Source: an uncultured Fluviicola sp.
GTDB lineage: Bacteria; Bacteroidota; Bacteroidia; Flavobacteriales_D; Crocinitomicaceae
Direction: 5' to 3'
DNA length: 64,000 bases
NCBI RefSeq assembly: GCF_902168135.1
Contig: NZ_CABHOL010000054.1
Coordinates: 124,001-188,000, forward strand
The first letter of the stretch is position 1, and each line of letters opens with the position of its first letter. The notes under the pieces were generated by a model. That model had not been told where the DNA came from. It searched no databases and saw nothing but the letters and a program-made list of their open reading frames with translations. This document shows positions 46,055 through 61,591 of the stretch, in pieces. Made by a program: the position numbers and the translations under genes.

Positions 46055-46068
46055 AAACAGTTTCACTT

Positions 46069-47055
46069 ATGAAATATCTTGTTCTCATTTTCATTATCTC
46101 TAGTGTCTTTGCCTCTTTCGGGCAGGATACTTTGCAGAATTTTTCACCCAATCGTGCATGGGTAATGTGTTCTGATCCTTCAACTAAATTGTATAGTTCG
46201 TCTAACGGTTTCATTTGTAATAACGGTTATACCAAACAGTACTTCCTGTTTAAACCCGAAAACAATTATGCAGCCTCAACGATTAGTTTTCGGGGCTATG
46301 CAAATGCAGGTACAGGAACTCCTGTGACAATTTCCTATAAGTTGTACGGACCTTTTAATGCGAATGACGACTACGCTTCATTAGTGGAAAACAATGTGGT
46401 CGCGCCGGTTTCTGTTGGAGGACCTTCTGCAGCATTGATTGCTATGACAGCAGCATTAACAGCGAATAAACATTATTTGCTGGAAATTACTTCCCAATCC
46501 TGTACAGGTAGAGTCGCTTTTGATCTGAGAGGTTATTCTCTCGGATGCAGCGTAGGAAAATTGAACGTTGAATGTGAAAATTGTATTCCAAAATTTCAAC
46601 CTATGAACGGGAAGTATGTAGTAACCGGATGGGTAAAAGAACAAGGTGGGGAAGCAAAAACTTCTTACGATAAATGTGTTATGAAAGTAATTATCGGTGC
46701 AGCTCCGCCGGTAACAATCCCGGTTTCAGGACAGATCATTGACGGTTGGCAGCGTATGGAAGAAACGGTTACAGCTAACAGCACAGGTGAGTTTGCTATT
46801 GAATTATCTTCTTTGACCAGTAACGAATGCTACTTTGACGATATTCGGGTAATTCCATACGAATCTTCCATGGTTAGTTATGTTTATGATCCTGTTACCA
46901 TGCGTTTGATCGCTGAATTGGACGAACGAAATTATGCCAAAATCTACGAATACGATGATGAAGGGAGACTGGTCCGCGTGAAGAAGGAAACTGAACGAGG
47001 AGTCATGACCATCCAGGAAAATAAAGAGAATACATCTGTTAAAGACGGGTACTAA
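46069..47055 (+). CDS. exported YD-repeat-containing protein, detached C-terminal part of an Rhs partner
   Basis: Protein of 328 aa with its own signal peptide (ending FASFGQ). A carbohydrate-binding-like beta fold (about 150-270, YVVTGWVKEQGGEAKTSYDK, DGWQRMEETVTANSTGEFAI, CYFDDIRVIPYESSM) is followed by a YD-type end (SYVYDPVTMRLIAELDERNY, YEYDDEGRLVRVKKETERGV). In other Bacteroidota, to my knowledge, this ending often closes the giant SpvB-like partner itself. Here it is a separate small protein directly after it, so gene fission or exchange is inferred. One base separates its stop from the next start. Confidence 0.75.
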   Translation: MKYLVLIFIISSVFASFGQDTLQNFSPNRAWVMCSDPSTKLYSSSNGFICNNGYTKQYFLFKPENNYAASTISFRGYANAGTGTPVTISYKLYGPFNANDDYASLVENNVVAPVSVGGPSAALIAMTAALTANKHYLLEITSQSCTGRVAFDLRGYSLGCSVGKLNVECENCIPKFQPMNGKYVVTGWVKEQGGEAKTSYDKCVMKVIIGAAPPVTIPVSGQIIDGWQRMEETVTANSTGEFAIELSSLTSNECYFDDIRVIPYESSMVSYVYDPVTMRLIAELDERNYAKIYEYDDEGRLVRVKKETERGVMTIQENKENTSVKDGY

Positions 47056-47056
47056 T

Positions 47057-47791
47057 ATGAAGAGGATCACATTGCTTATTTGTTTATGCACCTCACTTTT
47101 TTCAGCTGGCCAGGAGAAAAAGGAATTGGATGCGAAATCGTTCAATAACGAAATGGTGCTCTTAGGTAAAAAGATGAATGCCGAAATGATGTCCATTAAG
47201 TTCAAGAAGGAAGTTTTTAAGGACATTAACTCACCGGTGGTTGTAGAATCTGCTAACGGACAGATTATACGCGGAAAAGGATTGGACTATAAAATGGTCA
47301 ATCCTGGTATGATCAATTTCCAGACGGGGAAATTGAACGTATTGGTAGATTCAACGGAGCGTATGGTGATTATCTCTAATGTGGATTCATCTTTGCAGCA
47401 CATTTCACAGTTGAACCAAATTCCGTTGGATGTACTAAAGGATTACAAGTTGTCCAAAACCATTTTTCCAACATACTATATACTTCGTGCGGAGCCGGAA
47501 AATAAAACCATTGGAATTTTGGAATTCTATATCCATAAAGAATCAACGGAATTGTTCAAGTTTAATATGTTCTATCCCCCTGGTAATTATTTCTCTGAAT
47601 CGATGGAAGATGAAAGCCTGGAGTCACCTTATTTGACAATCATTTTTGAACCTATGAAGAAATTGAAGGAAACAGCTAGCCTGATTTCCCTGGAAAATAT
47701 ACTGGAAAAAAAGGCTGACGGAGAATATTTATTATCTCCTAAAATGGCCGGTTTTCAATTAAAAGACACCCGTTACAAATCACCTAAATAA
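47057..47791 (+). CDS. secreted hypothetical protein of the Rhs operon
   Basis: Protein of 244 aa with a signal peptide (ending LFSAGQ). The rest is beta-rich with a few acidic stretches (NGQIIRGKGLDYKMVNPGMI, NVLVDSTERMVIISNVDSSL). The strand order loosely recalls LolA/LolB-like folds, but I do not recognise the family. It starts 1 base after the 328-aa gene and ends 11 bases before the giant Rhs gene, so it is co-expressed with the toxin. A periplasmic chaperone or export helper is possible; no motif proves it. Confidence 0.72.
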   Translation: MKRITLLICLCTSLFSAGQEKKELDAKSFNNEMVLLGKKMNAEMMSIKFKKEVFKDINSPVVVESANGQIIRGKGLDYKMVNPGMINFQTGKLNVLVDSTERMVIISNVDSSLQHISQLNQIPLDVLKDYKLSKTIFPTYYILRAEPENKTIGILEFYIHKESTELFKFNMFYPPGNYFSESMEDESLESPYLTIIFEPMKKLKETASLISLENILEKKADGEYLLSPKMAGFQLKDTRYKSPK

Positions 47792-47802
47792 ATAATCGAA
47801 CC

Positions 47803-50800
47803 ATGTTTGTTGTAAGATTCATATCACTTTTAGTTCTGCTGCTTGTTAGCTTAAATGCAAGTGCAGTTTTTATACCTCATAATACAATGGTATTAACCGG
47901 AAGTATGACTTCAGGTTTCACGACAATTACACCACCTTCCTGGTCACTTTCACCAACTGTTGACTTGACACGGAAAGGTGTCATTACTTTAGGGGTGGAC
48001 CACCATTATTTGAATCACGTGAACCAATCGGTGACCGAAGTTACGATCAGTATTGTGAAATATACCGCTGCTGGAGGATCGGGAGCATCCCCGGAGACAA
48101 AGACATTGAAGGTGTCTTATTATCCGATTGATTCCTTGACCTATGTGGATGAGAATACCATTACAATTGACAATGTGGAGCGAATGGATATTACCATTAC
48201 ACAGGTTAAGGTGAATGGTGTTGTTCAAAGTCCAATGGCTATGCCGGCAAACTTGTATTTGCAGGCAGATGTATTTGTTGACCGCATTTATGATTTCACT
48301 TCACAGGTTGGATTCAATACTTATAATCTTGCAGCGGGAGATCCATTAGATATGGATTGTGATCTGGTGAGAGATGAAATGACAGTTTCCTGGGATGTGG
48401 TTCCCGGTGCTGAAGAATACCAGTTGGAATGGACATTCGTCAATACTGTTGATCTCACGACGACTGAAATTAATAACCTGAATATTGATTTTCGGAACAA
48501 CGCCACAAGGGTTTCTACCAAAGAAACAAGTTACAAAATATCCCTGCTTTTTGATCAGGGGTATATCGTTTTCCGGGTTAGGGCAGTGGGGAGATCAAGT
48601 GTGCCTCCTTATAACTTCTTATTCTCCAAATGGTCTATTCTTGACGGCCCTCAAATACTTGGACTTGTTCCTGCAACTAGTAAACAAGCTACGGAACCAT
48701 TCGATCTCAAAAAGAACTGGCAGTATAGCGCAACGTATGCAGAGGAAGGGAAAAAGAAAGAGGTAGTCTCCTTTTATGACGGTTCCCTTAGAAACCGGCA
48801 AATGGTTACAAAAATCAGTACAGATCATAACGCCATTGTGGGGGAAACAATCTACGATCACCAGGGAAGACCTGTTATTCAGGTATTGCCAGTACCGGTT
48901 ACAGACCCTTCACATTGTGATGTAGAGGATACGGAGAATTCATTGAAATTCTATCCGGATTTTAATTTGAATAGTTCAGATCAGCCTTATTCGAAGACTG
49001 ATTTTGATATTTCAAATGAAGAGAATCCTTGTAACCCGATGCAAATCGACTCGATGAGTGCGAGTAATGGAGCTTCTAAGTATTATTCAACAAGTAACAC
49101 CGACAATGCCGGAAGCCAGGCATATGTTCCGAATGCGCTCGGATTTCCGTTCAGCCAGGTGGAGTATATGCCGGATAATACTGGGCGCATCCGCAGACAA
49201 GGAGGTGTAGGGAAAGAATTTCAGTTATCAACGGATATCCCAACTCATCCGAGCTTGTATTATTATGCGCATCCTTTCCAGGAACAACTGGACCGTTTAT
49301 TTGGTTCGGAAGTCGGTGATGCGTCCCATTACCAGAAAAACATGGTGGTTGATCCCAATGGACAAGTAAGTGTTTCTTATTTGGATCAGGAAGGAAGAGT
49401 TGTGGCAACTTCCCTTGCAGGAGAAGCTCCGGGAAATCTTCAACAACTCCCTTCTGCAGCTGCTATTGCTCCTTTAACCGTAGATCTTTTCGCAAAGGAT
49501 GCAAACGGGAATTCAACGTCCAATAAGTTGTCATTTGATGGAATGTCGAAAGAATTCAACCAAACCATTTCCTTAAGCGGGCGAACAAGTTTGTCCATCA
49601 GCTATGACATCGAAATCAGAAGATTTAATACTGCCTGCCTGGGAGAGTTTTGTCTGAATTGTGTATATGATTTGTCTATCGAGGTACGGAATTTATGCGG
49701 CGATCTGGTGAGTCCTGTAGCAGTGTCTTCAAAAATGATAGGACGTTTTAAAGAATTACCAAGCGGAGACATTCAATTCCTTACAGATTGCAAAGATACT
49801 TCATTTACAACGACATTTAATACTGATACACTGGAAGTCGGAACTTACCAGATTACCAAAATCCTGACTGTTAATGAGGAAGCTCTGGAAACCTATCTGC
49901 AGATGTATACTGATACCTCTTCACATGGGATTAACAGATGTATCAATCAATACGATGATATTTTGGACCAGATTGGTGCAAGTTCGAACATCAATGATTG
50001 TTCGGATGATTTCAGCTGTGCGGAATGTGTTACCAATTTGGGCAGTTTATTGGAATACATTCAGGCAGGAGGAACAGAAGAGCAGTACAACTTTGAACTG
50101 GAATCATGTAATGCACCGTGTAAAGGAGCTTCCTATTATGAAAACATGCGTGAGATATTGATGGTAGACGTTTTTCCTGACGGACAATATGCACAATACC
50201 TGAATAATCAAAATGCGGTAGATCCGGATATGTACCCACTTTCGGTGTTGAATGACAATACGGGCGGAAGTACAAACCGTCTTCCAAAGACGGGGGCACA
50301 TTGGAGAAATCCACGCTACGATGTGGAGGCAACTATTCAGAATTTTTATTTTGAAGAAGATGGAGTAACAAAATCGCGGATTTACCTGGAAAATGTGAGC
50401 ATTACATCGAACCAGATGCTTATTTCAACACCATTGCTTCATCCTACTACAAGAACGGTAGGAACTCATGTGTTCCTGGATAATACTACAGGAACGTATT
50501 ATACCTACCCTCAATACTTAAAATCCGTAAGTGATTTCGTTACTTACTACAATGCAAACCGTCAGTGGGGAAATTCGTTGGTCTATTACCACCCGGAATA
50601 TGCTTATTTGAAAAAATACAAGGAGTATTACGTAAAAGTAAATTCTTCCGATCCATATACTTCAGAGTCGTTTGACCAGAAAATGATGAGTGTTAATACA
50701 TGGGCTGATGCAATTACTGCCGGATTCATTAATCCAAATTATGCCTCAGTTAGTGTAAATGGCCGTATCAATAACATCCTTACTATTAATGGAACATATC

Positions 50801-53800
50801 CATGGGATCCATACTCCAATTATGTGAATCCTTCCGGAATGAACTCAAAATTATTTAACTACACAACAATTAACGGAGTCAATTATTCCATGATGGAAAC
50901 AGCTGCCATGATGAACCGGGGTGGAAATAGCCTGATTGGAACTGTTCCGTCCGCTACCGATTTGGCTTTCGGATTAGATGTTGCAGGGAATACATCTACA
51001 CAGAATACCCAGTTACGGGATGCAGAATGGATTACGTTCCGTGGAATGTACATCGCTGCAAAGCAGGAGCTTCAATATGAAGCCGCAAGAGCCTCTGCAT
51101 TGAGTGTTTCAAATCCGGGATATAACGGATGTATAGGTGACGATTCTTTCAATCCTTTCCAGTTTGGATTCCTGACAGTTTTTCCAGGAGCTATTCCTTA
51201 TTTTGGAGGACAATTTTTCATGAATAACAACCAGCCGTGTTTTATTGCTACAGCGGCATATTACAAATACAAACAACCGCGTTTCGGGAACCAATTGGCA
51301 AATGTCAATACGGATCCCGCACAAGTTGCGTACCAGGCTTATCTGCAAACCGGACAATGTCCTATTGCAACAGCATTCCAGCGTTTGTTATCAGAAGTTG
51401 CTTCAGATCACAATTTGGCAACTACCAATTTTTCAGCATCCAGTACTTTGGCAAACCTGTCAAGCCTGGTTATGACAATTAACAACTTTGAAACGCCAAT
51501 CTCCATTCCGAATTTAACCTGGGTACAAAACACAGGAACCACTACCAGTACTACGCTGGAAGTAGACCTAATGGAGGGAACTTTTAATTATGGTACTTTC
51601 CAACTGGTTAAAGCTTCAGGAAGTGCCAGCTACAACTGGTCCGATATTATTTCGTTCAATAACCTGCAGTTTACAGGTTTTTTAGCTCCATTCTACCATT
51701 TTACAATAGATGTAAAGGTGATGATTTCAGGAGAAATGGTCACTCAGCATTTAACCGGAAAAACGAAGTTTAAGATTGGCAACTGTAATTTCCCGGATGT
51801 GTGCAAATTGAATGATTTCGGGAAGACACTTCAGAATATGGTAAAAACACTGGCTCAAATGGGAACTTTGACCAGTACCAGTTATGTAGACCTGACAGCG
51901 ATCCCATACAGCAATTTCATGACGAATGCACTGAAGTATACTGTCAATCCTGCTTATTCACCTGGAACAACGATTAAATGGAAATACGATGCCGCTATTC
52001 CAGGGTTTGTATTAACGGATGCAACAAACACCATTACTATCAAAATTACCGGAACAGATCCGGGCTCATTTAATTTGTCATCTATTTCAACCATCGCATT
52101 TATCGACGAGTTAAAAGCCGGTGCTAATAATACGATGGAACTCGTTTGTCTGAACAGTTCGAGCAATTACCTGGCAACACTTTCTTGTGAATTATTGCGT
52201 TCAGACAACAAAGCTATTCCTGTTGGAAAGTGCGGATTGGACGATGCTATTTTGTGTACCGGATTGGAGTACGATACTTACGAAGACCTGATGGCTGTTT
52301 TGAAATTTTCCCTCGAAAATCAAAACAGTCCGTTTAGCTTGTACAATTCACCACTTTGGACCTCTACATTGAATGATCAATTGGTGCCAAGCCCAACTGC
52401 AGTTACCGGTACGGTTACCGGAACCGGTGTGGGGGCAAAGCTGACCTATGTGATGCCGGATACCTGTAACCTGGTATTGACTTATAACGGAACAAACCCG
52501 AATTTCCATTTCAATAACATTGTTTCCGTGAATAGCATTAACCTGTTAAACCAGACGGTTTACGGATCTTACAACGATTTTAAATTATATGTGACTTATT
52601 CTTACGGAGGATCTTACTTCCAGGACTCTATCTTCGGAACCTCCTGCTTTAAGCTGAAAAGATGTACCGGGTGTACCCAGGGCCATGCCGGTGAATCCGG
52701 ACCTGCGGGGTCTGACCAGGTAGACGGAGAAATTGACCTGGGTTCTTTGAATGATGAAGAGTTTACAGAGGCTGATAATAATTCCGAAACCTATTGTTTA
52801 GATTTGTATGAAGATTATGTGAGTGCATATAATTTATTTGTAGCTCATCAGACAACAAATCCAACCTGTTCTAATTATGCAAGCTTATACCCGATGCTAA
52901 CTTACCCTCAATTCGTAGATGGAAGATATTGCTGTGGTAATAATATGCTTTCAGCTTTTAGAACAATATTAGATCTAACAACTACAACTGCTTGTCCAAA
53001 TAATTATTCTGTTGCTGATTTATGCGGAGAATTCAATTTAAGCGGTGGAGGCTGTGTTGATCTGCATACGATTTATACTAGTGTCATAAATTACTTCAAT
53101 TCTTCTGATTGGGCCACAACAAATAATGCCTCTTTAACTGCAGTAGCTTCTGGTGTGGTTTCCTGTAAATGTGAAGCTAGCTATTTGAATTACTTATTGG
53201 AGTATTTAACTGCTGATCCGCATCAAAATTTAAGTCATCCTATTAGCATTATTTCTTATTGTGCATTAATGGATGCTGAACCCGAAAATACCTGCAGCTC
53301 AAAATACGACCAATATGTTTCATGTACGAATTACTTCAATGATAACAATGATTCGGAAGACCTTGCTATTGTTGATTACGACGTATTCATGGAACAAGAA
53401 TTGTGTTATTGTGTGGATGAATACTGCTCGAACCTGAGCCTGACATTGAGCCACCTGGCCAGTGAGTCAAGAGACCTTTTATACTTTTGTCAATCCGTAA
53501 GTGAAATTCCATGCGTGGTTGATACTCCGATGGTGAGTTACGAAAGCTTTGAGATCGATTTTGAGGATCCGTGTGTAGCTTTTTATGAAAGTAACAACGA
53601 AGTGAATGCTCAAAACCATTTCAATGAGCAAATCCAGGATTTCTATACCCAATTGGGACAGGAGTATATTGAACACTGTATGCGCTCTACTGAAAACATG
53701 TCTTTAAGTTACAGAGAGATTGAGCATCATTTTACCCTTTACTACTACGATCAGGCAGGGAACCTGGTTAAAACGATTCCACCGGAAGGAGTTGAATTTG

Positions 53801-56800
53801 TCAATATGAACGATGCGCAGATACGGGATGGGATTAAAAATGACCGATTGAACAATACGCACAAAGTGACAACCAGTCACCGTATGGCCACAACTTACCT
53901 GTATAACTCGTTGAACCAGCTGGTGGCACAAAATATGCCCGACCAGGATCCTATAAAAGTCTTCGAGCCGTCTTTGCCGAATGGCTTGCCGATTGCTTTG
54001 AATACTACCGGAATCCAAATGATTGATGCAAACCAGGGGTATCTTACGGGTTATATAAATGCAACCGGAATTGCGCCGCTGGTGAACCGGGGATATTTGT
54101 TTAAAACCAGTAACGGTGGTTTGAACTGGGTGCGCGTGACTAACACCTTGGGCACAGATTTAAGGGAAGTATACATGGTCTCTGCCACAGTAGGTTATGC
54201 ACTGGCATCAAACGGATTGAGTTTAATTACGAAAGACGGAGGAAATAACTGGGATTTGACCGACATGCCGCTAGCTGCAAACTATGCAGAGTATGTCGCT
54301 ATGGAAGTTATCGGAACAGATGCATACTTGTTAAATCGTAATGGTTTCATTTATAAAGTTAACTCATCAGGAGTATCCAGTACTTACCTTGGATTATTCG
54401 GAACTTTGCCGAATCCATATTCTTTGGTAGCTGTAAAAGATTTTACACTGCAGGGAAGCACAACCAATTTCCAGGGGATCATCTATCTCCTGACGGTAAG
54501 TGATGGTACGGAAACCTTTGATGTAACTGCTATAACAAGCAACACATCCGGAAATGCTTTGTTACTCGATAAAACGGTAGTTGGAAATCTCCAGGCACTT
54601 TCATTTTATACGACTACGGCGGCAATCGTTGGTGGTAATGATGGAAATACTTCCAGAATTGACGGTACGGCTGCTGCTTCCTTCAGACAACGCCTGCAGA
54701 AATCAGACGCGAAAGGAGTAATTGATCAAATTCATATGCTGAATGCCACAGTAGGAATTGCCCGTATCACTGAAAACGGTGTTAAAGTCATTCGAAAAAC
54801 AACAGATGGAGGAACAACTTGGACTGCGCTTTCCAGTGAATATACCGATGCCACTTTATCTTTTAACCGGCGCACGGCTACTACGCTCGAAGTACTCGTT
54901 CAGGGATATGAAGCCGGTACTGTTAATGCAGCTTATTCCAAAAATGTGGTAATGAACACCTCGGGTATTTGCTCCGAGTTGAGTCAAAACCCAACAATGG
55001 CACAGAATATCAATATGTCTCTTGTTTACACATACAATGATGGAACAAACCTGACCTATTATGGACTTGCATACGATAACACGCTTGCAAATTACAGGCT
55101 GTACAAATCCAATTCTTTTACAACGATCGGATCTAATGTGAGCTTTACACCAATTGTAGATTGGGTAGGCGGTTCAATTATTCCGAAAGAACTGGTAGTT
55201 GCCAAATCCGGCTCTGAAATTGCGGTGGAAGTAGTGGCTGATAATGGTAATCTATACCGTTCCCAGTCGTCGGGTGCAGTAACGAGTTTCTCTCTTTTCT
55301 CAGCGGTATCAGGAATGACATCTATTGTATCGATGGATAAAATTACTATTTCATCGATAGACCATATTGTTGCATATCGCTCTTCAGATACACGTTTGTA
55401 TGTCAGAGCTGCGACTGGAGCAAGTGCATACGTTTATTATGGAGGTACTCCGGCTTTGAGCGGTTCGGTGATTACTAAGATCGCAGCACACGGTTCAAAC
55501 GTTACACTCATCGGAACTAACGGGGGAATTTTCACCTCTACCGGGGTTAATTTTGTGCCGCCTTCAAATGGTGGAGGAACTGCTTTGGTATTTACAGACC
55601 GCAAATCCCACCAGCTTTACGGACTAACGGAAATGAAATACACTCCGTCTATGAACCTGATTGCAGGGGAGAACGGACAGGCATACACAAGACCGATCTT
55701 TTTAACCGGTACTTCTACTTCTCAATTGAGGCCGCTTGGAATAACATCTGACCTTTGTGCGATGAACCAGGTCACTTATGGTGGTAACACTCATTATGTT
55801 TACGGAGGTAAAAACGGAGACCTGGCTATGATCCAGTCAAACGGAACGCTTGCTCCAACATTGTATACGACAACCGGGTCTTCGGTTAAGGCTCATTTGT
55901 CAGGGCAAACAATCAATGATATTGCCGTTCTAACAACATCGGGAGTTAGTAAAGTATGTATCGTGGGAGATAACGGTGCTCTTTATTACACCACGAATAT
56001 CAGCACGGAATCATTTATGCCGGCAATCAGCCAGACAAATCGCAATTTCCTCGGTGCTTCGATTATTACAGGTACAGATAAAGTAATGGTGGTTGGTACC
56101 GGAACAGAAATATTCCGCTACAGCCAAAATATCGGTACACGTATCAACCGGGTATTCGGACCGAAGTATAACGATGTGCATTTTGAAAATGGTCAAATCG
56201 GGACCTTGATCGGGGATAATTACTTTGTACGTTCTACTTTAAACGGCGGATTGGATTGGAAAATAATCAAACCTACTACCGGTCCGGGTATAACAGGACT
56301 GAAGAAAGTGTGGACCAAGTCCAAACCGAACGGAGAACATTTTGCCCTGATAGGTGGTGTTAATTACTATTTGAAAGCTGATAACGGAACAGTTGCTGAG
56401 TATGCGATCAGCGGAACAGTAAACGATATCCAGTTCTCGAAAGTAAATCCGTTATTCGGTTACATGGCTTTCAACAGCACATTGGCGAAAGTAAACCTGA
56501 CGCTTTTATCAGGAACATATACCATTACTCCATCGAATGTGTATACAGCTGCGAACACCATCCGCGGGCTTCATGTATTTGAGAACACATCTGCGATCAT
56601 GGTCGGGGACGGCGGCGGCATTTATTACTACCGAAATGATCCTGCTGCACTTGGAGGTTATAGTCTTGCAACGGTCTCCGGGGTTACTTTCCGGGATGTT
56701 TATTTTATTGACAACAAAGTTGGTTTGGCTGTCGGTGATGCAGGTAAAATTTACAGTCTATCCTCTTCAAGCAATGCTCCGTATACACATGATATCCTGA

Positions 56801-59800
56801 GCGGAGGTTTTGGTTATCTGCCGGAATCGATTACCGATCCGGAATTTGGAACAACTTTGGTTTCCTACAATATTACAGCATTGGCTTTCAGTTCTTCTAC
56901 AAGCGCCATTTACGGAGGTTCATTTGTAAACGCTTCCGATGTGACTTCAAGAGGCGCTATGGTGCGCTACCTGAAATACGAAAAAGAATTGTTCACTTCG
57001 CGTTTCTATTACGATCGTTTGGGCAGGATTGTAGTGAGCCAGAACTCCAGACAGGCAGGGGCGAGCGGAATTACCGATGACAAGTACTCATATACTGTTT
57101 ATGACGGGTTGGGACGTGTAAAAGAAGCAGGAGAAAAATCCGAAAATACAAGTGGAATTAAATTCGCAGGAATTTTCGGGACGAACGTTGGTGGTACTAC
57201 CGTACCGAACGTGGTGGATGATGCGAACCTGGGAGTATGGTTATCCAATAATGCCGTTAACACCCGCAAGGAGGTCACAAAAAGTTATTACGATGAGACC
57301 AATGCAGCGATCAACTCGGATCTTGGTTTCACCAGTACCACACTCAATAAAGCCACACAACGTAAGCGCATTGTCCATGTGACTTATTCGGCAGTTTATT
57401 CTGCAAGTGATAATGTCTATGATCATGCTACACATTACGACTACGATATTCACGGGAATGTGAAGACTTTATACCAGGACAATCGTTTGGTGAAGGTAAT
57501 GACCAATCTTTCCGCGCAACGGATCAAGAAACTGGATTATATCTATGATTTGATCTCAGGCAATGTACACCGGGTAGATTACCAGACCGGGCAATCCGAT
57601 CAGTGGCACCATGCTTATGCCTACGATGCGGACAACCGCATTACGGATGTGTATACAACGGTTGAAACGCCATTGACAAGTGAGTATTCTTCGATTGCAT
57701 CCCTGCAAAACGAACCGGAAATCAGTACGATGTGGGACCGTGAGGTCAATTACCTATATTACGAGCACGGACCTTTGGCACGCACCATTATCGGGGACCA
57801 GGAAGTACAGGGTGTTGATTACGTTTACACGCTGCAGGGTTGGATCAAGGGAGTTAACTCCAATACACTGGATGTGAACCGCGATCCGGGACAGGATGGG
57901 GCCGCTGGTGATAATAAATTCATTGCTCACGACGTATTTGGTTACAGCCTGCATTACTTTGATGGCGATTACGGCGGCGCAATCGGAGGAAATAACAGCT
58001 TTGTAGCGACCCAAACTGCGGGCAGCGGAATGGTGGCGAATTCAAACCAGCTGTACAATGGGAATATCGGGCGCATGGTTACTACAATAACCGATCCGGA
58101 TACCCGCGAGGTACTTCCTTTGGGAAATGCGTACAAGTACGACCAGTTGAACCGTTTGTATGAAGCACGCAGCTTTAATAATATAAACCTGGCTACCAAT
58201 TCCTGGAATACCGGTGGTACAACCATGTATTACAATCAATTCACCTACGACGCCAACGGGAACATCATGACCCAGGTGCGCTACGATGAAACGGCCAGCG
58301 GAATTATTGACCAGTTGTCTTACCAATACAAAGATGCAGCCGGGGCCATTGGAACATCAAACCCTAAAAAGCACAACCGCTTGTACAATGTACAGGATGC
58401 TTATGACTACCCGGAAGGAAATGATATTAGGATAGGGCAGGCATCCAATAACTACAGCTACGATGCAGAAGGACGTTTGATTTATGACAAACAGGAAGGC
58501 AGAGTTTATAATTGGCGTGTTGATGGCAAATTGGAATCAACTTATTGGGATCCTAATTCTGGTACGCCAATGAAGCGTGATATTTATTTCGATTACGATG
58601 CCATGGGGCACCGTATTGCAAAACACATTTCCAATGAAGATGCGGAATATCGTGAAAAAAGTATATATTACGTATTGGATGCACAAGGAAATGTGATGAG
58701 TGTATATGAACGTATAATAAATAACTTAGAGCAAAGTGTGAGTTTTACTCAAACCGAGAAACATATCTACGGAAGCAGCAGACTTGGAGTACACAATGAA
58801 CGTATTGAATTACTGGGTACTCAAAATGAGACCTATTCCATGGCAAACATTCACCACCACATCGGGGATAAGACATACGAGTTGTCCAATCATTTGGGGA
58901 ATGTGTTGAGTGTGGTGAGTGATAAAGTTCTGCCTGTTTCTGATCAGACATCCATTTACAGCAATGACTTTAGCAGCGGTTTGGGAGGATTTATCAATGA
59001 TCCCGGAGTGGTGTTATCATTGGTTGGCGGTCAGTTGCAGGTATCCAATGTTCCAACCCATTATTGTACACGCCGCTCATTGAACAGTCTTACCACAGCC
59101 GGGCATTCCTACAAGGTCCGTTTCAAGATAGATTTGAACGGAAGCGGGCCTGTATCGGCTTATACAGCCATAAGTTCAACCATTTTCGGGATTGTGAACT
59201 GCTCCGGCAATGGTACTTATGAATTTACATATACTCCTACGGGAACTACGTTTACCAACTTGTATTTGCGTTTTGAGAGTATGGGCGGAGCTGTATCACC
59301 AAGAACCTTTTATATTGATGATGTCAGCATAGAAGATATTACTGTCACCGGTTACTTAGCCGACATCCGCCAGAGCACAGATTACTCTCCGTTTGGGGTA
59401 AAACTGCATAAACGGGATTTGGAACTTACCGGTTCGAATTCTGCTTATCGTTATGCATTCAACGGCTACGAAGGTGATAATGAAGTAAAAGGTGACGGCA
59501 ATAGCTACACGACAGAGTTTAGACAGTATGACCCACGTTTAGGACGTTGGTTGAGCATGGATCCTTTTAGTCAGTTTGTAGGTTCTCAATACACTAGCTT
59601 TAACAACAATCCTATTTTTTGTATTGATCCAGATGGTGGTTGGGTTCCAGTTATTGTTGAGCATAAGACTATAGAAGATCATCCAACTGACAAAGCTAAA
59701 TACATTCAAAAAACGACAACTATCTTAGCTGCAAAGTTTGAAGAGGGAGACGATGCAAAGTCTTTGGCAAAATTTCTTGACATACCAGAAAGGGAAGCTG

Positions 59801-60321
59801 AAAAGTTATTTCAAAATGCATGTAACTTAGCCGAATCTGAGGCAGGTAAGTACATACCTATTCCTGAAGATATTGCGGGGTCTATAAACACAGCTATTCA
59901 AAATACATTAAAGGGAAATTCTGAAGAATACAATTGTTGGGCAAGTGCTATTTATACTTCTCAAGGACGTTTTCCATTAGAGAATGGAGCTGAAAAAAAT
60001 TATAAATATGGAACAGCGAAGGATTTTGACGACCGTTTGGAAGAGCCAGATTATAAAAATGTATCTACCAAATATAATGAGTGGACATTTGGAAGAACAA
60101 TTTTTAAGTTTAGAAATTCCAGCTGGGATATGATGGACGGCACTCAAGAAAAAACTACCCATGGCTGTATCTTTCTCGGATATGATAAAAAAGGAACGAT
60201 GTACTTTTTCACCAAAAATGGTTGGGATGATTCTCCATGTATAATGACTTCTGAAGAAGTGTCTGATATGTACGGATTTAAGCGTAATGGGCAAAAGGCA
60301 TATAATTATATAGGACAATGA
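47803..60321 (+). CDS. giant Sec-exported Rhs protein with papain-like C-terminal tip
   Basis: Polymorphic-toxin-like protein of 4172 aa. It has a Sec signal peptide (ending LNASA), an FN3-like domain (about 185-290, VSWDVVPGAEEYQLEW) and Rhs N-terminal motifs (VVSFYDGSLRNRQMVTKIS, ETIYDHQGRPVIQVLP). A long Cys-rich region (about 600-2000) leads to YD strands (TYLYNSLNQLVAQNMPDQD near 2040) and a YCF48/BNR-like propeller of about 1000 aa (about 2061-3062). YD repeats resume (SRFYYDRLGRIVVSQNSRQ) up to the Rhs core (AYRYAFNGYEGDNEVK, EFRQYDPRLGRWLSMDPF, NNPIFCIDPDGG, about 3880-3946). A tip of about 227 aa follows. No T9SS C-terminal signal is visible. The tip lies just before a candidate immunity gene. 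Confidence 0.9.
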   Translation: MFVVRFISLLVLLLVSLNASAVFIPHNTMVLTGSMTSGFTTITPPSWSLSPTVDLTRKGVITLGVDHHYLNHVNQSVTEVTISIVKYTAAGGSGASPETKTLKVSYYPIDSLTYVDENTITIDNVERMDITITQVKVNGVVQSPMAMPANLYLQADVFVDRIYDFTSQVGFNTYNLAAGDPLDMDCDLVRDEMTVSWDVVPGAEEYQLEWTFVNTVDLTTTEINNLNIDFRNNATRVSTKETSYKISLLFDQGYIVFRVRAVGRSSVPPYNFLFSKWSILDGPQILGLVPATSKQATEPFDLKKNWQYSATYAEEGKKKEVVSFYDGSLRNRQMVTKISTDHNAIVGETIYDHQGRPVIQVLPVPVTDPSHCDVEDTENSLKFYPDFNLNSSDQPYSKTDFDISNEENPCNPMQIDSMSASNGASKYYSTSNTDNAGSQAYVPNALGFPFSQVEYMPDNTGRIRRQGGVGKEFQLSTDIPTHPSLYYYAHPFQEQLDRLFGSEVGDASHYQKNMVVDPNGQVSVSYLDQEGRVVATSLAGEAPGNLQQLPSAAAIAPLTVDLFAKDANGNSTSNKLSFDGMSKEFNQTISLSGRTSLSISYDIEIRRFNTACLGEFCLNCVYDLSIEVRNLCGDLVSPVAVSSKMIGRFKELPSGDIQFLTDCKDTSFTTTFNTDTLEVGTYQITKILTVNEEALETYLQMYTDTSSHGINRCINQYDDILDQIGASSNINDCSDDFSCAECVTNLGSLLEYIQAGGTEEQYNFELESCNAPCKGASYYENMREILMVDVFPDGQYAQYLNNQNAVDPDMYPLSVLNDNTGGSTNRLPKTGAHWRNPRYDVEATIQNFYFEEDGVTKSRIYLENVSITSNQMLISTPLLHPTTRTVGTHVFLDNTTGTYYTYPQYLKSVSDFVTYYNANRQWGNSLVYYHPEYAYLKKYKEYYVKVNSSDPYTSESFDQKMMSVNTWADAITAGFINPNYASVSVNGRINNILTINGTYPWDPYSNYVNPSGMNSKLFNYTTINGVNYSMMETAAMMNRGGNSLIGTVPSATDLAFGLDVAGNTSTQNTQLRDAEWITFRGMYIAAKQELQYEAARASALSVSNPGYNGCIGDDSFNPFQFGFLTVFPGAIPYFGGQFFMNNNQPCFIATAAYYKYKQPRFGNQLANVNTDPAQVAYQAYLQTGQCPIATAFQRLLSEVASDHNLATTNFSASSTLANLSSLVMTINNFETPISIPNLTWVQNTGTTTSTTLEVDLMEGTFNYGTFQLVKASGSASYNWSDIISFNNLQFTGFLAPFYHFTIDVKVMISGEMVTQHLTGKTKFKIGNCNFPDVCKLNDFGKTLQNMVKTLAQMGTLTSTSYVDLTAIPYSNFMTNALKYTVNPAYSPGTTIKWKYDAAIPGFVLTDATNTITIKITGTDPGSFNLSSISTIAFIDELKAGANNTMELVCLNSSSNYLATLSCELLRSDNKAIPVGKCGLDDAILCTGLEYDTYEDLMAVLKFSLENQNSPFSLYNSPLWTSTLNDQLVPSPTAVTGTVTGTGVGAKLTYVMPDTCNLVLTYNGTNPNFHFNNIVSVNSINLLNQTVYGSYNDFKLYVTYSYGGSYFQDSIFGTSCFKLKRCTGCTQGHAGESGPAGSDQVDGEIDLGSLNDEEFTEADNNSETYCLDLYEDYVSAYNLFVAHQTTNPTCSNYASLYPMLTYPQFVDGRYCCGNNMLSAFRTILDLTTTTACPNNYSVADLCGEFNLSGGGCVDLHTIYTSVINYFNSSDWATTNNASLTAVASGVVSCKCEASYLNYLLEYLTADPHQNLSHPISIISYCALMDAEPENTCSSKYDQYVSCTNYFNDNNDSEDLAIVDYDVFMEQELCYCVDEYCSNLSLTLSHLASESRDLLYFCQSVSEIPCVVDTPMVSYESFEIDFEDPCVAFYESNNEVNAQNHFNEQIQDFYTQLGQEYIEHCMRSTENMSLSYREIEHHFTLYYYDQAGNLVKTIPPEGVEFVNMNDAQIRDGIKNDRLNNTHKVTTSHRMATTYLYNSLNQLVAQNMPDQDPIKVFEPSLPNGLPIALNTTGIQMIDANQGYLTGYINATGIAPLVNRGYLFKTSNGGLNWVRVTNTLGTDLREVYMVSATVGYALASNGLSLITKDGGNNWDLTDMPLAANYAEYVAMEVIGTDAYLLNRNGFIYKVNSSGVSSTYLGLFGTLPNPYSLVAVKDFTLQGSTTNFQGIIYLLTVSDGTETFDVTAITSNTSGNALLLDKTVVGNLQALSFYTTTAAIVGGNDGNTSRIDGTAAASFRQRLQKSDAKGVIDQIHMLNATVGIARITENGVKVIRKTTDGGTTWTALSSEYTDATLSFNRRTATTLEVLVQGYEAGTVNAAYSKNVVMNTSGICSELSQNPTMAQNINMSLVYTYNDGTNLTYYGLAYDNTLANYRLYKSNSFTTIGSNVSFTPIVDWVGGSIIPKELVVAKSGSEIAVEVVADNGNLYRSQSSGAVTSFSLFSAVSGMTSIVSMDKITISSIDHIVAYRSSDTRLYVRAATGASAYVYYGGTPALSGSVITKIAAHGSNVTLIGTNGGIFTSTGVNFVPPSNGGGTALVFTDRKSHQLYGLTEMKYTPSMNLIAGENGQAYTRPIFLTGTSTSQLRPLGITSDLCAMNQVTYGGNTHYVYGGKNGDLAMIQSNGTLAPTLYTTTGSSVKAHLSGQTINDIAVLTTSGVSKVCIVGDNGALYYTTNISTESFMPAISQTNRNFLGASIITGTDKVMVVGTGTEIFRYSQNIGTRINRVFGPKYNDVHFENGQIGTLIGDNYFVRSTLNGGLDWKIIKPTTGPGITGLKKVWTKSKPNGEHFALIGGVNYYLKADNGTVAEYAISGTVNDIQFSKVNPLFGYMAFNSTLAKVNLTLLSGTYTITPSNVYTAANTIRGLHVFENTSAIMVGDGGGIYYYRNDPAALGGYSLATVSGVTFRDVYFIDNKVGLAVGDAGKIYSLSSSSNAPYTHDILSGGFGYLPESITDPEFGTTLVSYNITALAFSSSTSAIYGGSFVNASDVTSRGAMVRYLKYEKELFTSRFYYDRLGRIVVSQNSRQAGASGITDDKYSYTVYDGLGRVKEAGEKSENTSGIKFAGIFGTNVGGTTVPNVVDDANLGVWLSNNAVNTRKEVTKSYYDETNAAINSDLGFTSTTLNKATQRKRIVHVTYSAVYSASDNVYDHATHYDYDIHGNVKTLYQDNRLVKVMTNLSAQRIKKLDYIYDLISGNVHRVDYQTGQSDQWHHAYAYDADNRITDVYTTVETPLTSEYSSIASLQNEPEISTMWDREVNYLYYEHGPLARTIIGDQEVQGVDYVYTLQGWIKGVNSNTLDVNRDPGQDGAAGDNKFIAHDVFGYSLHYFDGDYGGAIGGNNSFVATQTAGSGMVANSNQLYNGNIGRMVTTITDPDTREVLPLGNAYKYDQLNRLYEARSFNNINLATNSWNTGGTTMYYNQFTYDANGNIMTQVRYDETASGIIDQLSYQYKDAAGAIGTSNPKKHNRLYNVQDAYDYPEGNDIRIGQASNNYSYDAEGRLIYDKQEGRVYNWRVDGKLESTYWDPNSGTPMKRDIYFDYDAMGHRIAKHISNEDAEYREKSIYYVLDAQGNVMSVYERIINNLEQSVSFTQTEKHIYGSSRLGVHNERIELLGTQNETYSMANIHHHIGDKTYELSNHLGNVLSVVSDKVLPVSDQTSIYSNDFSSGLGGFINDPGVVLSLVGGQLQVSNVPTHYCTRRSLNSLTTAGHSYKVRFKIDLNGSGPVSAYTAISSTIFGIVNCSGNGTYEFTYTPTGTTFTNLYLRFESMGGAVSPRTFYIDDVSIEDITVTGYLADIRQSTDYSPFGVKLHKRDLELTGSNSAYRYAFNGYEGDNEVKGDGNSYTTEFRQYDPRLGRWLSMDPFSQFVGSQYTSFNNNPIFCIDPDGGWVPVIVEHKTIEDHPTDKAKYIQKTTTILAAKFEEGDDAKSLAKFLDIPEREAEKLFQNACNLAESEAGKYIPIPEDIAGSINTAIQNTLKGNSEEYNCWASAIYTSQGRFPLENGAEKNYKYGTAKDFDDRLEEPDYKNVSTKYNEWTFGRTIFKFRNSSWDMMDGTQEKTTHGCIFLGYDKKGTMYFFTKNGWDDSPCIMTSEEVSDMYGFKRNGQKAYNYIGQ
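53985..56990 (+). other. YCF48/BNR-like propeller inserted in the Rhs protein
   Basis: About 1000 codons within the 4172-aa gene encode repeated blades such as GYLFKTSNGGLNWVRV, LSLITKDGGNNWDLT, KVIRKTTDGGTTWTALS, YFVRSTLNGGLDWKI and VGLAVGDAGKIYSL. These fit the YCF48 or sialidase-type (BNR, S/T-x-D/N-G-G-x-x-W) propeller. The insert starts just after a YD motif (LYNSLNQLVAQ) and ends just before another (FYYDRLGRIVVSQ). Confidence 0.75.
59640..60318 (+). other. variable C-terminal tip of the Rhs protein, papain-like
   Basis: Residues about 3946-4172 follow the Rhs core boundary (NNPIFCIDPDGGW). Papain-type motifs are visible: EEYNCWASAIY with C4045, THGCIFLGYD with H4120, and MYFFTKNGWDD with N4139, comparable to papain CWA, HAV..GY and YW..KNSW. 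Base composition drops here: hand counts give 22 and 21 G/C in the 60-base lines at 59641 and 59941, against 33 in the line at 57181. This supports tip exchange. Confidence 0.7.
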
Positions 60322-60743
60322 TTAAACTTAACAGATTTTCAAAATTGATATTAAAAGTAATGATGGTAGTTAATCTTATTACCATCTTAATTGCTTTTGT
60401 ACAAAAAAGAGAGGAATTTCATGATAAAAAAATTCTTTTCTTTTTTGTATTGTATTCTGCTTTTCTATTTGTTCTTAGCGGAAAGTCAAAGACAATTTTA
60501 ATTCTAAATCTTTTTTTACAATATTTTTATTTCACCATTCTCACGATAGAATTAATTATTTCAGGATTTATTTATTTACAGTCAATTAATTATCCTCTTT
60601 ATTTGTTTTTCTACTTTGATCGAAGTGAGGAATCTGGAGATTTTCTAATTGTAATTCCTGTTCTCTTTTTACTAGTAAATTTCGTGTTTAATCATTTCTT
60701 ATTATTCAAATGGAAAAATGGAATAACCAAAAGTAAAATTTGA
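60318..60743 (+). CDS. small polytopic membrane protein, candidate immunity protein
   Basis: Membrane protein of 141 aa with about four hydrophobic segments (LILKVMMVVNLITILIAFV, ILFFFVLYSAFLFVL, TILILNLFLQYFYFTILTI, FLIVIPVLFLLVNFVF). It has no recognised family. Its ATG overlaps the Rhs stop as ATGA, the position where polymorphic toxin systems place immunity genes. Composition is very AT-rich: about 26% G/C by hand count over 60361-60480, the most AT-rich coding DNA noticed here, a sign of transfer along with the tip. Membrane immunity proteins usually counter envelope- or periplasm-acting toxins. That would fit an exported toxin, but direct inhibition is inference only. Confidence 0.75.
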   Translation: MIKLNRFSKLILKVMMVVNLITILIAFVQKREEFHDKKILFFFVLYSAFLFVLSGKSKTILILNLFLQYFYFTILTIELIISGFIYLQSINYPLYLFFYFDRSEESGDFLIVIPVLFLLVNFVFNHFLLFKWKNGITKSKI

Positions 60744-60839: not shown

Positions 60840-60879
60840 AAAAAGAACAAGTGAGGATTCCCCTTCACTTGTTCTTTTT
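60840..60879. terminator. bidirectional terminator upstream of the transposase gene
   Basis: Arms 60840-60854 and 60865-60879 are exact 15-base complements (core AGAACAAGTGA with TCACTTGTTCT) with A tract on the left and T tract on the right. It ends transcription coming from the Rhs/immunity operon and shields the transposase from readthrough. Confidence 0.8.
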
Positions 60880-60919: not shown

Positions 60920-61591
60920 ATGTTATCAAAAATCACCTGTATGAATTGCCACTATTGTCATGAAACGTGTATTCGAAAAGGAAAGCAAAAAACTGTTCAG
61001 ATCTATCAATGTAAAAGTTGCCTGAAATACCAACGCCAGGACTATAAATACCGATCAAAACTAATTGAAGATCAGCAGTTAATTCAACTGGTTAAAGAAG
61101 GGTGCGGAATTAGAAGTATTGCAAGAGTTTTGACTATTTCCAATTCAACGGTTCTGCGAAGAATATTGAAGATTGGAAGATCAATAAAACGGTCACCTAC
61201 TGTTTCATTCGGCCAAACCTATCAAGTAGATGAGTTGTTTACTTACATCGGAAATAAGAACAACCGGGTTTGCGTTGCCTACTCCTTGAATGCTAAAACA
61301 AAAGAGGTTATTGATTTAGTAGTAGGTAGAAGAAACAAGACCAATCTGAAAAGAATTATTTCAACCTTGCTCTTATCTGATGCAAAGCAAATCACAACAG
61401 ACAAGCTGAATATCTACAAAGAACTTATTCCGGTTCGGATCCATTCAACCAAAAATCGTGGAATAAATCACATTGAAAGGCAAAACCTCAATTTAAGAAC
61501 GCACATAAAACGCCTGAACCGACGAACGATTTGTTATTCGAAATCAGCAACAATGCTTTTGGCTGTAGTGAAGATTTATTTTTGGAGTTAA
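60920..61591 (+). CDS. IS1-family transposase, single-frame
   Basis: Transposase of 223 aa. It has an N-terminal zinc-binding region (CMNCHYC and YQCKSCLKYQ), a helix-turn-helix (QLVKEGCGIRSIARVLTISN) and a DDE catalytic core: D in YQVDELFTYIGNKNN, D in QITTDKLNIYKELI, E in INHIERQNLNLRTHIKRLNR. Classical IS1 makes InsAB' by frameshift, but here a single uninterrupted frame encodes the whole protein, as in some other IS1 members. Catalytic residues appear intact. It lies between the candidate immunity gene and the YkgJ-like gene, so it may have taken part in reshaping the toxin tip. Confidence 0.85.
   Translation: MLSKITCMNCHYCHETCIRKGKQKTVQIYQCKSCLKYQRQDYKYRSKLIEDQQLIQLVKEGCGIRSIARVLTISNSTVLRRILKIGRSIKRSPTVSFGQTYQVDELFTYIGNKNNRVCVAYSLNAKTKEVIDLVVGRRNKTNLKRIISTLLLSDAKQITTDKLNIYKELIPVRIHSTKNRGINHIERQNLNLRTHIKRLNRRTICYSKSATMLLAVVKIYFWS

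What the first reader, a model, noticed from the sequence alone, without database searches (positions are those of the whole stretch)
59640..60743. Papain-like Rhs tip with an overlapping membrane immunity candidate
After the Rhs core boundary the 4172-aa protein switches to an AT-richer tip with NCWASA (C4045), THGCIFLGYD (H4120) and YFFTKNGWDD (N4139), closely resembling the papain CWA, HAV..GY and YW..KNSW motifs but with only 75 residues between Cys and His. The next gene overlaps by 4 bases (ATGA), encodes about four membrane helices and is strongly AT-rich. Papain-like toxins (Tox-PL) are known in polymorphic systems and may act as peptidases or deamidases. A membrane-type immunity partner for such a toxin is, to my knowledge, uncommon. 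The pairing is inferred from position and composition.
Basis: partly seen in the sequence, partly recalled or inferred. Interest (0 to 1): 0.9.

Follow-up and report, generated by a model that had tools for sequence, protein, structure and literature searches.

The report
Papain-like Rhs tip with membrane partner
The tail of a giant bacterial protein looks like a small cysteine enzyme of the kind used against rival bacteria, and the gene right behind it encodes a membrane protein that probably protects its owner; similar pairs turn up in two related bacteria, so the pairing is probably real, but it is one pair among many and its fold and action are untested.

Summary
The 4172-aa Rhs protein leaves its conserved core at residue 3945 and ends in a 227-aa tip with C4045, H4120 and N4139 where stated. 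The next gene overlaps it by ATGA, is 23.5% GC, has four hydrophobic segments and is followed by a terminator-like hairpin.

The tip matched nothing in Pfam, NCBIfam, PHROGs, PADLOC or PDB sequences. I found three relatives. Two are in the same family (3 of 240 genomes, own included); both are followed by proteins with four hydrophobic segments but no sequence relation to the window's. A distant one ends another Rhs protein and is followed by an exported, non-multipass protein.

A papain-like fold rests on motifs only. Against a C1 profile, His and KNG fall opposite H..KNSW (best of 61 tips; 0 of 150 shuffles), but the relatives do not strengthen this and both AlphaFold models failed (pLDDT 39-40).

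Membrane partners are not odd here: 48 of 61 Rhs partners look envelope-targeted, against 76 of 189 similar-sized ORFs of the genome. Most likely an envelope-acting papain-like toxin with an inner-membrane immunity protein. A published parallel exists (Tox-Act1/Imm-Act1). New family pair, known kind.

The parts
47803..60321 (+). Rhs carrier, 4172 aa; N-terminal hydrophobic stretch that reads as a Sec signal peptide (by eye), DUF6443, Ycf48-like stretch, RHS core, variable tip
   Evidence: translation; DUF6443 E 8.4e-8; TIGR03696 at residues 3861-3945 and a sub-threshold Ycf48 match
59383..59637 (+). RHS-associated core, the boundary before the tip
   Evidence: TIGR03696
59638..59919 (+). 94-aa stretch between core and catalytic-type domain, no detectable relatives
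   Evidence: z -0.3 against the L047 tip and 0.8 against the corresponding stretch of L037
59920..60318 (+). 133-aa papain-like domain (candidate toxin)
59935..59937 (+). codon of C4045 (YNCWASA), candidate nucleophile
   Evidence: position checked; Cys kept in L037 and L047, region absent in fragment L005
60160..60162 (+). codon of H4120 (THGCIFLGYD), candidate catalytic His
   Evidence: kept in 4 of 4 sequences
60217..60219 (+). codon of N4139 (TKNGW), candidate third catalytic residue
   Evidence: kept in 3 of 4 sequences, L047 has GRAG
60318..60743 (+). 141-aa protein with four hydrophobic segments, candidate immunity protein; both termini basic and the last loop acidic, which fits a cytoplasmic N and C terminus
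   Evidence: no family match
60840..60879 (+). terminator-like hairpin, 17 pairs, after the Rhs plus partner unit
   Evidence: 1 found, 0.6 expected in shuffles
60920..61591 (+). IS1-type transposase next to the cassette, not part of it
   Evidence: DDE_Tnp_IS1 E 4.3e-21

Best explanation
A polymorphic-toxin cassette. The giant Rhs protein is exported, probably by Sec, and carries at its end a small cysteine hydrolase of papain-like type (Cys, His, Asn in papain order), delivered into the envelope of a neighbouring cell. There it would cut or modify an envelope target, most likely a peptide bond in a protein exposed at the inner membrane. The overlapping gene makes an inner-membrane protein with four helices that shields the producer at that site, by binding the toxin or masking its target. 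Shown here: module boundary, motifs, membrane character of the partner, recurrence of the pairing. Inferred: fold, catalysis, delivery, target, immunity.
For: Two relatives of the domain in other genera are followed at once by proteins with four hydrophobic segments (L037: 124 aa, gap 1 base, inside an array of displaced Rhs cassettes; L005/L039: 139 aa, gap 5 bases). With the window that is 3 of 3, against 10 of 58 other cassettes with three or more (Fisher p 0.008; 3 of 4 and p 0.026 if L047 counts). Other Rhs proteins of the genus that I read carry other tips with other neighbours. Window tip against a 20-sequence C1 profile: E 6e-4 (single comparison), His/KNG in register with H..KNSW, best of 61 tips, 0 of 150 shuffles at that score (best shuffle 26.4 against 28.1); the three-row alignment also beats 150 of 150 shuffles. 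The window's Cys motif lines up with the Cys motif of a C39_2 profile. Overlap plus terminator suggest one transcript. Partners of Rhs tips in this family are enriched for envelope signals, 48 of 61 against 76 of 189 ORFs (p 1e-7). Printed rule: effectors acting on membrane or periplasm have TM or signal-peptide immunity proteins (PMC6267618, passages).
Against: AlphaFold pLDDT 39.4 and 39.8; best Foldseek E 0.38; no relevant profile hit in the PDB. L037 alone scores low against C1 (13.8), and adding L047 lowers the profile score (18.9). The C39_2 match is reached by 2 of 150 shuffles and beaten by two other tips. The three membrane proteins show no sequence relation beyond composition (z -1.0 to 0.0), so shared ancestry is not shown. 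L047's partner is exported but not multi-pass. Only three close examples, one of them a 66-aa fragment. Export and delivery are not shown.
Confidence: 0.55

Rival explanations
1. The tip acts in the cytoplasm, like the T6SS/CDI-linked papain-like protease toxin Cpe1, and the membrane protein protects by blocking entry across the inner membrane.
For: Cpe1 is a papain-like toxin that cuts GyrB and ParE (PMC12136450, abstract and passages); two-TM immunity proteins have been proposed to prevent toxin uptake (PMC3482391, section 38 part 1).
Against: Cpi1, the Cpe1 immunity protein, is described as binding the toxin directly beside its active site; most partners catalogued in this clade look envelope-targeted; the distant relative L047 has an exported partner, which fits periplasmic action better.
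Confidence: 0.22
2. The papain-like domain is a lipid-acting enzyme (phospholipase or acyltransferase), as in Tox-Act1 with its two-TM Imm-Act1.
For: Papain-like fold and membrane immunity occur together in Tox-Act1, shown to be a phospholipase (PMC12994826, abstract and passages); papain-like fatty acyltransferase toxins are also mentioned in PMC12419801 (passages); in array L038 a tip that looks lipase-like by eye (THSMGAA) has a partner with four hydrophobic segments.
Against: Tox-Act1 and TseH are permuted NlpC/P60 enzymes (in Tox-Act1 His43 precedes Cys151), whereas this tip has Cys before His; no resemblance to an unpermuted NlpC/P60 profile; a permuted profile was not tested.
Confidence: 0.15
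3. The C/H/N motifs are a coincidence in an unrelated small fold; the tip is a toxin of another kind.
For: No family or structure search is significant; L047 lacks the KNG motif.
Against: Cys and His motifs and their order are kept between sequences about 30% identical or less; the C1 profile aligns in register; of the first 14 Foldseek rows 11 are papain-like proteases, several of them chains of one protein and none significant.
Confidence: 0.2
4. The downstream membrane gene is not an immunity gene but an unrelated or decayed neighbour.
For: The three neighbours are not related by sequence.
Against: Four-base overlap, terminator-like hairpin after it, the same kind of neighbour in 3 of 3 close cases, and a gene directly behind each of the five displaced tips of array L038.
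Confidence: 0.1

Closest known systems
Tox-Act1/Imm-Act1 (T6SS; PMC12994826, abstract and passages read)
   Same: Papain-like antibacterial toxin paired with a membrane immunity protein
   Different: Permuted NlpC/P60 core (His before Cys), phospholipase, T6SS; two TM helices in the partner instead of four hydrophobic segments; no profile match to unpermuted NlpC/P60 here
Cpe1/Cpi1 and related papain-like protease toxins (PMC12136450, abstract and passages; 9l5u)
   Same: Cys-His-Asp/Asn papain-like toxin domains, some on Rhs carriers, with divergent neighbouring immunity genes
   Different: C39/ComA-like; Cpi1 binds the toxin directly and the targets are GyrB and ParE; sequence searches of the PDB with this tip listed no papain-like chain
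Tox-PL1, Tox-PL-2, Tox-PL3, Tox-PLC39, Tox-NLPC/P60 (PMC3482391, table passages)
   Same: Papain-like domains in polymorphic toxins, several of them in Bacteroidetes and with RHS repeats
   Different: Signatures printed there are NC-H-DxQ and C-H-D types; partners seen in the passages are Imm35, SUKH, SuFu, Imm73 or none; no library model matches this tip
Peptidase family C1 (papain)
   Same: Order Cys, His, Asn; H and KN(S/G)W in register over 26-27 columns
   Different: 133 aa against 220 positions of the Pfam model; Cys-His 75 residues in the window, papain about 134 (recalled)

Membership tests
Rhs polymorphic toxin | RHS-associated core followed by a variable C-terminal tip | tested here: met
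   TIGR03696 E 4.1e-11 at residues 3861-3945; tips differ among the related Rhs proteins read
Rhs polymorphic toxin | Cognate gene directly downstream that neutralises the tip | tested here: inconclusive
   Gene present and of the same kind in 3 of 3 close cases; neutralisation cannot be tested here
Papain-like fold (clan CA) | Cys at the start of a helix, then His and Asn/Asp on the sheet, in one site | tested here: inconclusive
   AF2 starts a helix at the Cys and has a strand at, or two residues after, the His in the two runs, but with pLDDT about 40; motif register with C1 and C39_2 profiles
Peptidase C1 (PF00112) | Score over the curated cut-off of the family model | tested here: not met
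   No PF00112 row for the tip at E<=5 or <=10
Peptidase C39 / C39_2 | Family match | tested here: not met
   No Pfam match; profile score reached by 2 of 150 shuffles, although Cys and His motifs align in register
NlpC/P60 | Family or profile match | tested here: not met
   No Pfam match; 10 of 150 shuffles of the window domain and 99 of 150 of the three-row alignment score as high
Tox-PL families of PMC3482391 | Match to library models | tested here: not met
   No Pfam or NCBIfam match; which of these families are in the libraries was not checked
Tox-Act1-like | Permuted core with His before Cys | tested here: not met
   Cys precedes His by 75 residues
Membrane immunity protein | Several transmembrane helices and protection of the producer | tested here: inconclusive
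   Four hydrophobic segments by Kyte-Doolittle scan; protection not testable here

The most novel reading that the evidence does not exclude
A so far unnamed family of unpermuted papain-like toxins that works on a protein in or at the inner membrane and is held in check by non-homologous four-helix membrane proteins, within a clade where exported Rhs proteins have specialised in envelope targets and envelope immunity.
Probability: 0.25. Interest if true: 0.65.

Novelty: new variant of a known kind. Interest (0 to 1): 0.45.

Why it matters
If true, it adds an unpermuted papain-like family to the cysteine-hydrolase toxins that act at the envelope, with a multi-pass membrane immunity protein whose mode of inhibition could be studied. 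The side result may matter more: in this Flavobacteriales family 48 of 61 catalogued Rhs partner genes look envelope-targeted by crude rules, unlike the mostly cytoplasmic immunity proteins of the 2012 survey (PMC3482391, section 38 part 1), which suggests that these Rhs proteins deliver mainly to the periplasm. A simple compartment test can check that.

Tried and rejected
Family libraries gave nothing for the tip: Pfam at E<=5 and <=10, with only a sub-threshold SUKH_6 match (E 0.034-0.64) for the window tip and a sub-threshold PBP_dimer_2 match (E 0.12) for L037, both read as chance; NCBIfam gave only the Rhs core and one sub-threshold match (E 0.1); PHROGs and PADLOC gave none; PDB sequences gave none with one sequence and one profile, and an aminotransferase at E 0.24 with the other profile. 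Plasmid and viral collections: no relatives; phages: one hit at E 0.9. First genome-contig scan: none; second: L037. Order-wide protein search: 65 of 399 genomes at E<=1, own included; I kept L004 (the same contig as L037) and L005, and took the rest, from E 0.0096 up, as chance; one search listed frame lengths for five of them, and I read none. One of these, L007 in the genus of L005, has stops and could be a decayed copy. Class-wide profile search: only the own genome, 1 of 395. Phylum-wide: 6 of 395 at E<=0.01; apart from the own genome I read L043, L046 and L047 and kept L047; L044 and L045 were not read.

A LysM-like reading of the stretch before the domain was dropped (z -0.3). An NlpC/P60 reading was dropped. 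Homology of the membrane partners was tested and not found. Pfam named none of nine other tips with multi-pass partners (two sub-threshold matches; four further such tips were not tested), so I could not show which of them act on the envelope; the lipase- and lysozyme-like readings of L038 and L141 and the caspase-like reading of L113 are by eye only. The second fold search option (pdb_via) was not used because the models are too poor.

Biases of the 61-cassette count: the script left out loci L001-L032, L035-L037 and L040-L042 (L037 is the same contig as L038), tips under 80 aa, repeats with the same last 40 residues, and tips without a closed neighbouring ORF of 55 aa or more within 150 bases; the next gene was chosen by an ATG-first rule; some cassettes are related to each other; TM and signal calls are crude hydropathy rules; L047 comes from outside the family; L005 is not among the 61 and was added for the 3-of-3 test. 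The baseline is 400 kb of one contig of the own genome with simple ORF calling at 100 aa or more, so it lacks the shortest partners.

Full report
What is there. The window lies in a genome of 56 contigs, in the same family as the genome that holds the contig of the MAG Flavobacteriales bacterium ZLKRG09. The genus name was not given and I do not name it. The Rhs gene 47803-60321 encodes 4172 aa beginning with a hydrophobic stretch that reads as a signal peptide (by eye), has DUF6443 and a Ycf48-like stretch, and ends its RHS core at residue 3945. The tip is residues 3946-4172. C4045, H4120 and N4139 are at the places given. The next gene, 60318-60743, overlaps by ATGA and has four hydrophobic segments; a 17-pair terminator-like hairpin follows at 60840-60879 and an IS1-type transposase at 60920-61591. 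GC falls from 42.4% (Rhs before the tip) to 35.8% (tip) to 23.5% (partner).

Relatives. No family library knows the tip. An order-wide search gave two usable hits besides the own genome among 399 genomes, and a profile over the held genomes of the family found 3 of 240, own included. L037 (the same contig as L004 and L038) is a displaced Rhs cassette in an array of five tips, each followed by its own gene; the papain-like tip is followed after 1 base by a 124-aa protein with four hydrophobic segments. L005/L039 is a 66-aa remnant covering the His and KNG motifs, followed after 5 bases by a 139-aa protein with four hydrophobic segments. L047, from another class (the one of the other phylum hits that I judge real, 395 genomes searched), is the tip of an Rhs protein with a 2456-aa open frame; it has NCF and NHSAVY but GRAG in place of KNG, and its overlapping neighbour is a 128-aa protein with an N-terminal export-like signal. 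Pairwise z-scores over 500 shuffles: window-L037 14.4, window-L005 10.1, L037-L005 10.9, L005-L047 11.3, window-L047 5.8, L037-L047 3.9. The stretch before the domain is not detectably related. The three membrane partners are not related by sequence (z -1.0, 0.0 and -0.9).

Does the tip swap with its partner? In the genus, 12 of 14 genomes, own included, have related Rhs cores. Nineteen C-terminal stretches from other genomes of the genus were fetched, and one upstream stretch. The five other very long Rhs proteins that I read (open frames of 4202-4627 aa: own contig 15, G130, G106 and two in G142) have other tips and other neighbours. None of the 13 other held genomes of the genus has this tip. 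So core and tip-plus-neighbour are separable units, as in other polymorphic toxins.

Is it papain-like? For: the order Cys, His, Asn; the window tip against a profile of 20 C1 peptidase domains from the same class gives E 6e-4 for a single comparison, with His and KNGW opposite H and KNSW; it ranks first of 61 tips, and none of 150 shuffles reaches it (28.1; best shuffle 26.4). The three-row alignment gives 26.8 and also 0 of 150. Against a C39_2 profile of six domains the window aligns at the Cys motif (EYNCWASAI opposite NYNCGASAF) and L037 at the His motif, but 2 of 150 shuffles score as high as the window and two other tips score higher. NlpC/P60 shows nothing. Foldseek with the poor model lists papain-like proteases in 11 of the first 14 rows (several are chains of one protein, best E 0.38, TM about 0.2), which may reflect the letters of the motif as much as the shape. 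Against: both AlphaFold runs have pLDDT about 40, L037 alone does not match C1, adding L047 weakens the match although the register stays, and the PDB profile searches found nothing relevant. I put the fold at about 0.75.

How unusual is a membrane partner? From the fetched loci a script catalogued 61 tips with a neighbour: 12 partners have at least three hydrophobic segments. By crude rules 15 are multi-pass, 14 have a lipobox, 19 an N-terminal hydrophobic stretch and 13 none, so 48 of 61 look envelope-targeted. In 400 kb of the own genome the same rules give 76 of 189 ORFs of 100-370 aa (40%; Fisher p 1e-7), and 9 of 189 with three or more segments. Thus envelope partners are the rule for the Rhs cassettes seen in this family. 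Within that, the papain-like tips stand out for multi-pass partners: 3 of 3 close cases against 10 of 58 (p 0.008), or 3 of 4 with L047 (p 0.026); against tips without a hydrophobic segment of their own, 7 of 47 (p 0.006). The cassettes are not independent and the numbers are small.

How it probably works. An exported carrier and an envelope-located partner point to a target in the periplasm or at the inner membrane; a published survey of Vibrionaceae effectors found that those predicted to act there come with TM or signal-peptide immunity proteins (PMC6267618, passages). I therefore prefer a cysteine hydrolase acting at the inner-membrane surface, checked by a membrane protein whose last, acidic loop would face the periplasm if both basic termini are inside (inference). 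Entry block with a cytoplasmic target, and a lipid target, are the main rivals.

What is known. Papain-like toxin domains are catalogued in polymorphic toxins; the passages that I read list soluble or no partners for them, and the survey calls nearly all immunity proteins cytoplasmic (PMC3482391, table passages and section 38 part 1). Cpe1/Cpi1 is a studied pair in which the immunity protein binds the toxin directly (PMC12136450, abstract and passages). Tox-Act1/Imm-Act1 joins a papain-like core with a two-TM immunity protein (PMC12994826, abstract and passages). Papain-like fatty acyltransferase toxins are mentioned in PMC12419801 (passages). The TANFOR class of Bacteroidetes toxins (PMC7073777, abstract and passages) shows that Bacteroidetes carriers with variable tips and very diverse immunity genes are known. 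In the listings of my paper searches I saw no report of this tip family or of a four-helix partner for an unpermuted papain-like toxin; the library holds open-licence papers only, and the listings show at most 25 titles each.

Verdict. The enzyme class is likely but not shown, and the rarity claimed for a membrane partner does not hold in this clade. A new family pair of a known kind.

Noticed in passing
61 Rhs cassettes in loci L033-L157: Partner genes of Rhs tips look mostly envelope-targeted (48 of 61) against 76 of 189 ORFs of 100-370 aa of the own genome, suggesting that Rhs toxins of this family mainly act in the periplasm.
   Followed up: partly
window 40319-47791: A block of a 1911-aa protein, a 328-aa protein and a LolA3-like 244-aa protein (NF053579, E 1.7e-15 but below its cut-off) precedes the Rhs gene. 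All three have relatives before the long Rhs gene in L087 (G130); the 328- and 244-aa genes have them in L033 (own contig 15), whose stretch starts too late to show the first. A possible delivery or maturation unit.
   Followed up: partly
L038 1-9128: A contig made almost wholly of displaced Rhs tips with partners: five tip-partner pairs, including two tips that look lipase-like by eye (THSMGAA), one with a lipoprotein-like and one with a four-segment partner.
   Followed up: partly
L141 (tip ends 1065) and L113 (tip ends 2514): Tips that by eye look lysozyme-like and caspase-like, followed by partners with 3 and 2 hydrophobic segments; Pfam names neither.
   Followed up: no
window 10138-16758 and 17033-23257: Two adjacent very large ORFs (2206 and 2074 aa) that look like paralogues, judging from antisense ORFs of equal length in matching places.
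   Followed up: no
window 60920-61591: An IS1-type transposase gene begins 176 bases after the partner gene, a possible agent of cassette turnover.
   Followed up: no
L072 and L082: Rhs tips from two genomes of the genus that look alike by eye, including a HINT-like processing stretch and a similar 234-236-aa partner: tip and partner kept together.
   Followed up: no
L007 (G115, genus of L005): A weak match to the tip's C-terminal part (41% over 39 residues, E 0.014) in a frame with two stops, possibly a decayed copy.
   Followed up: no
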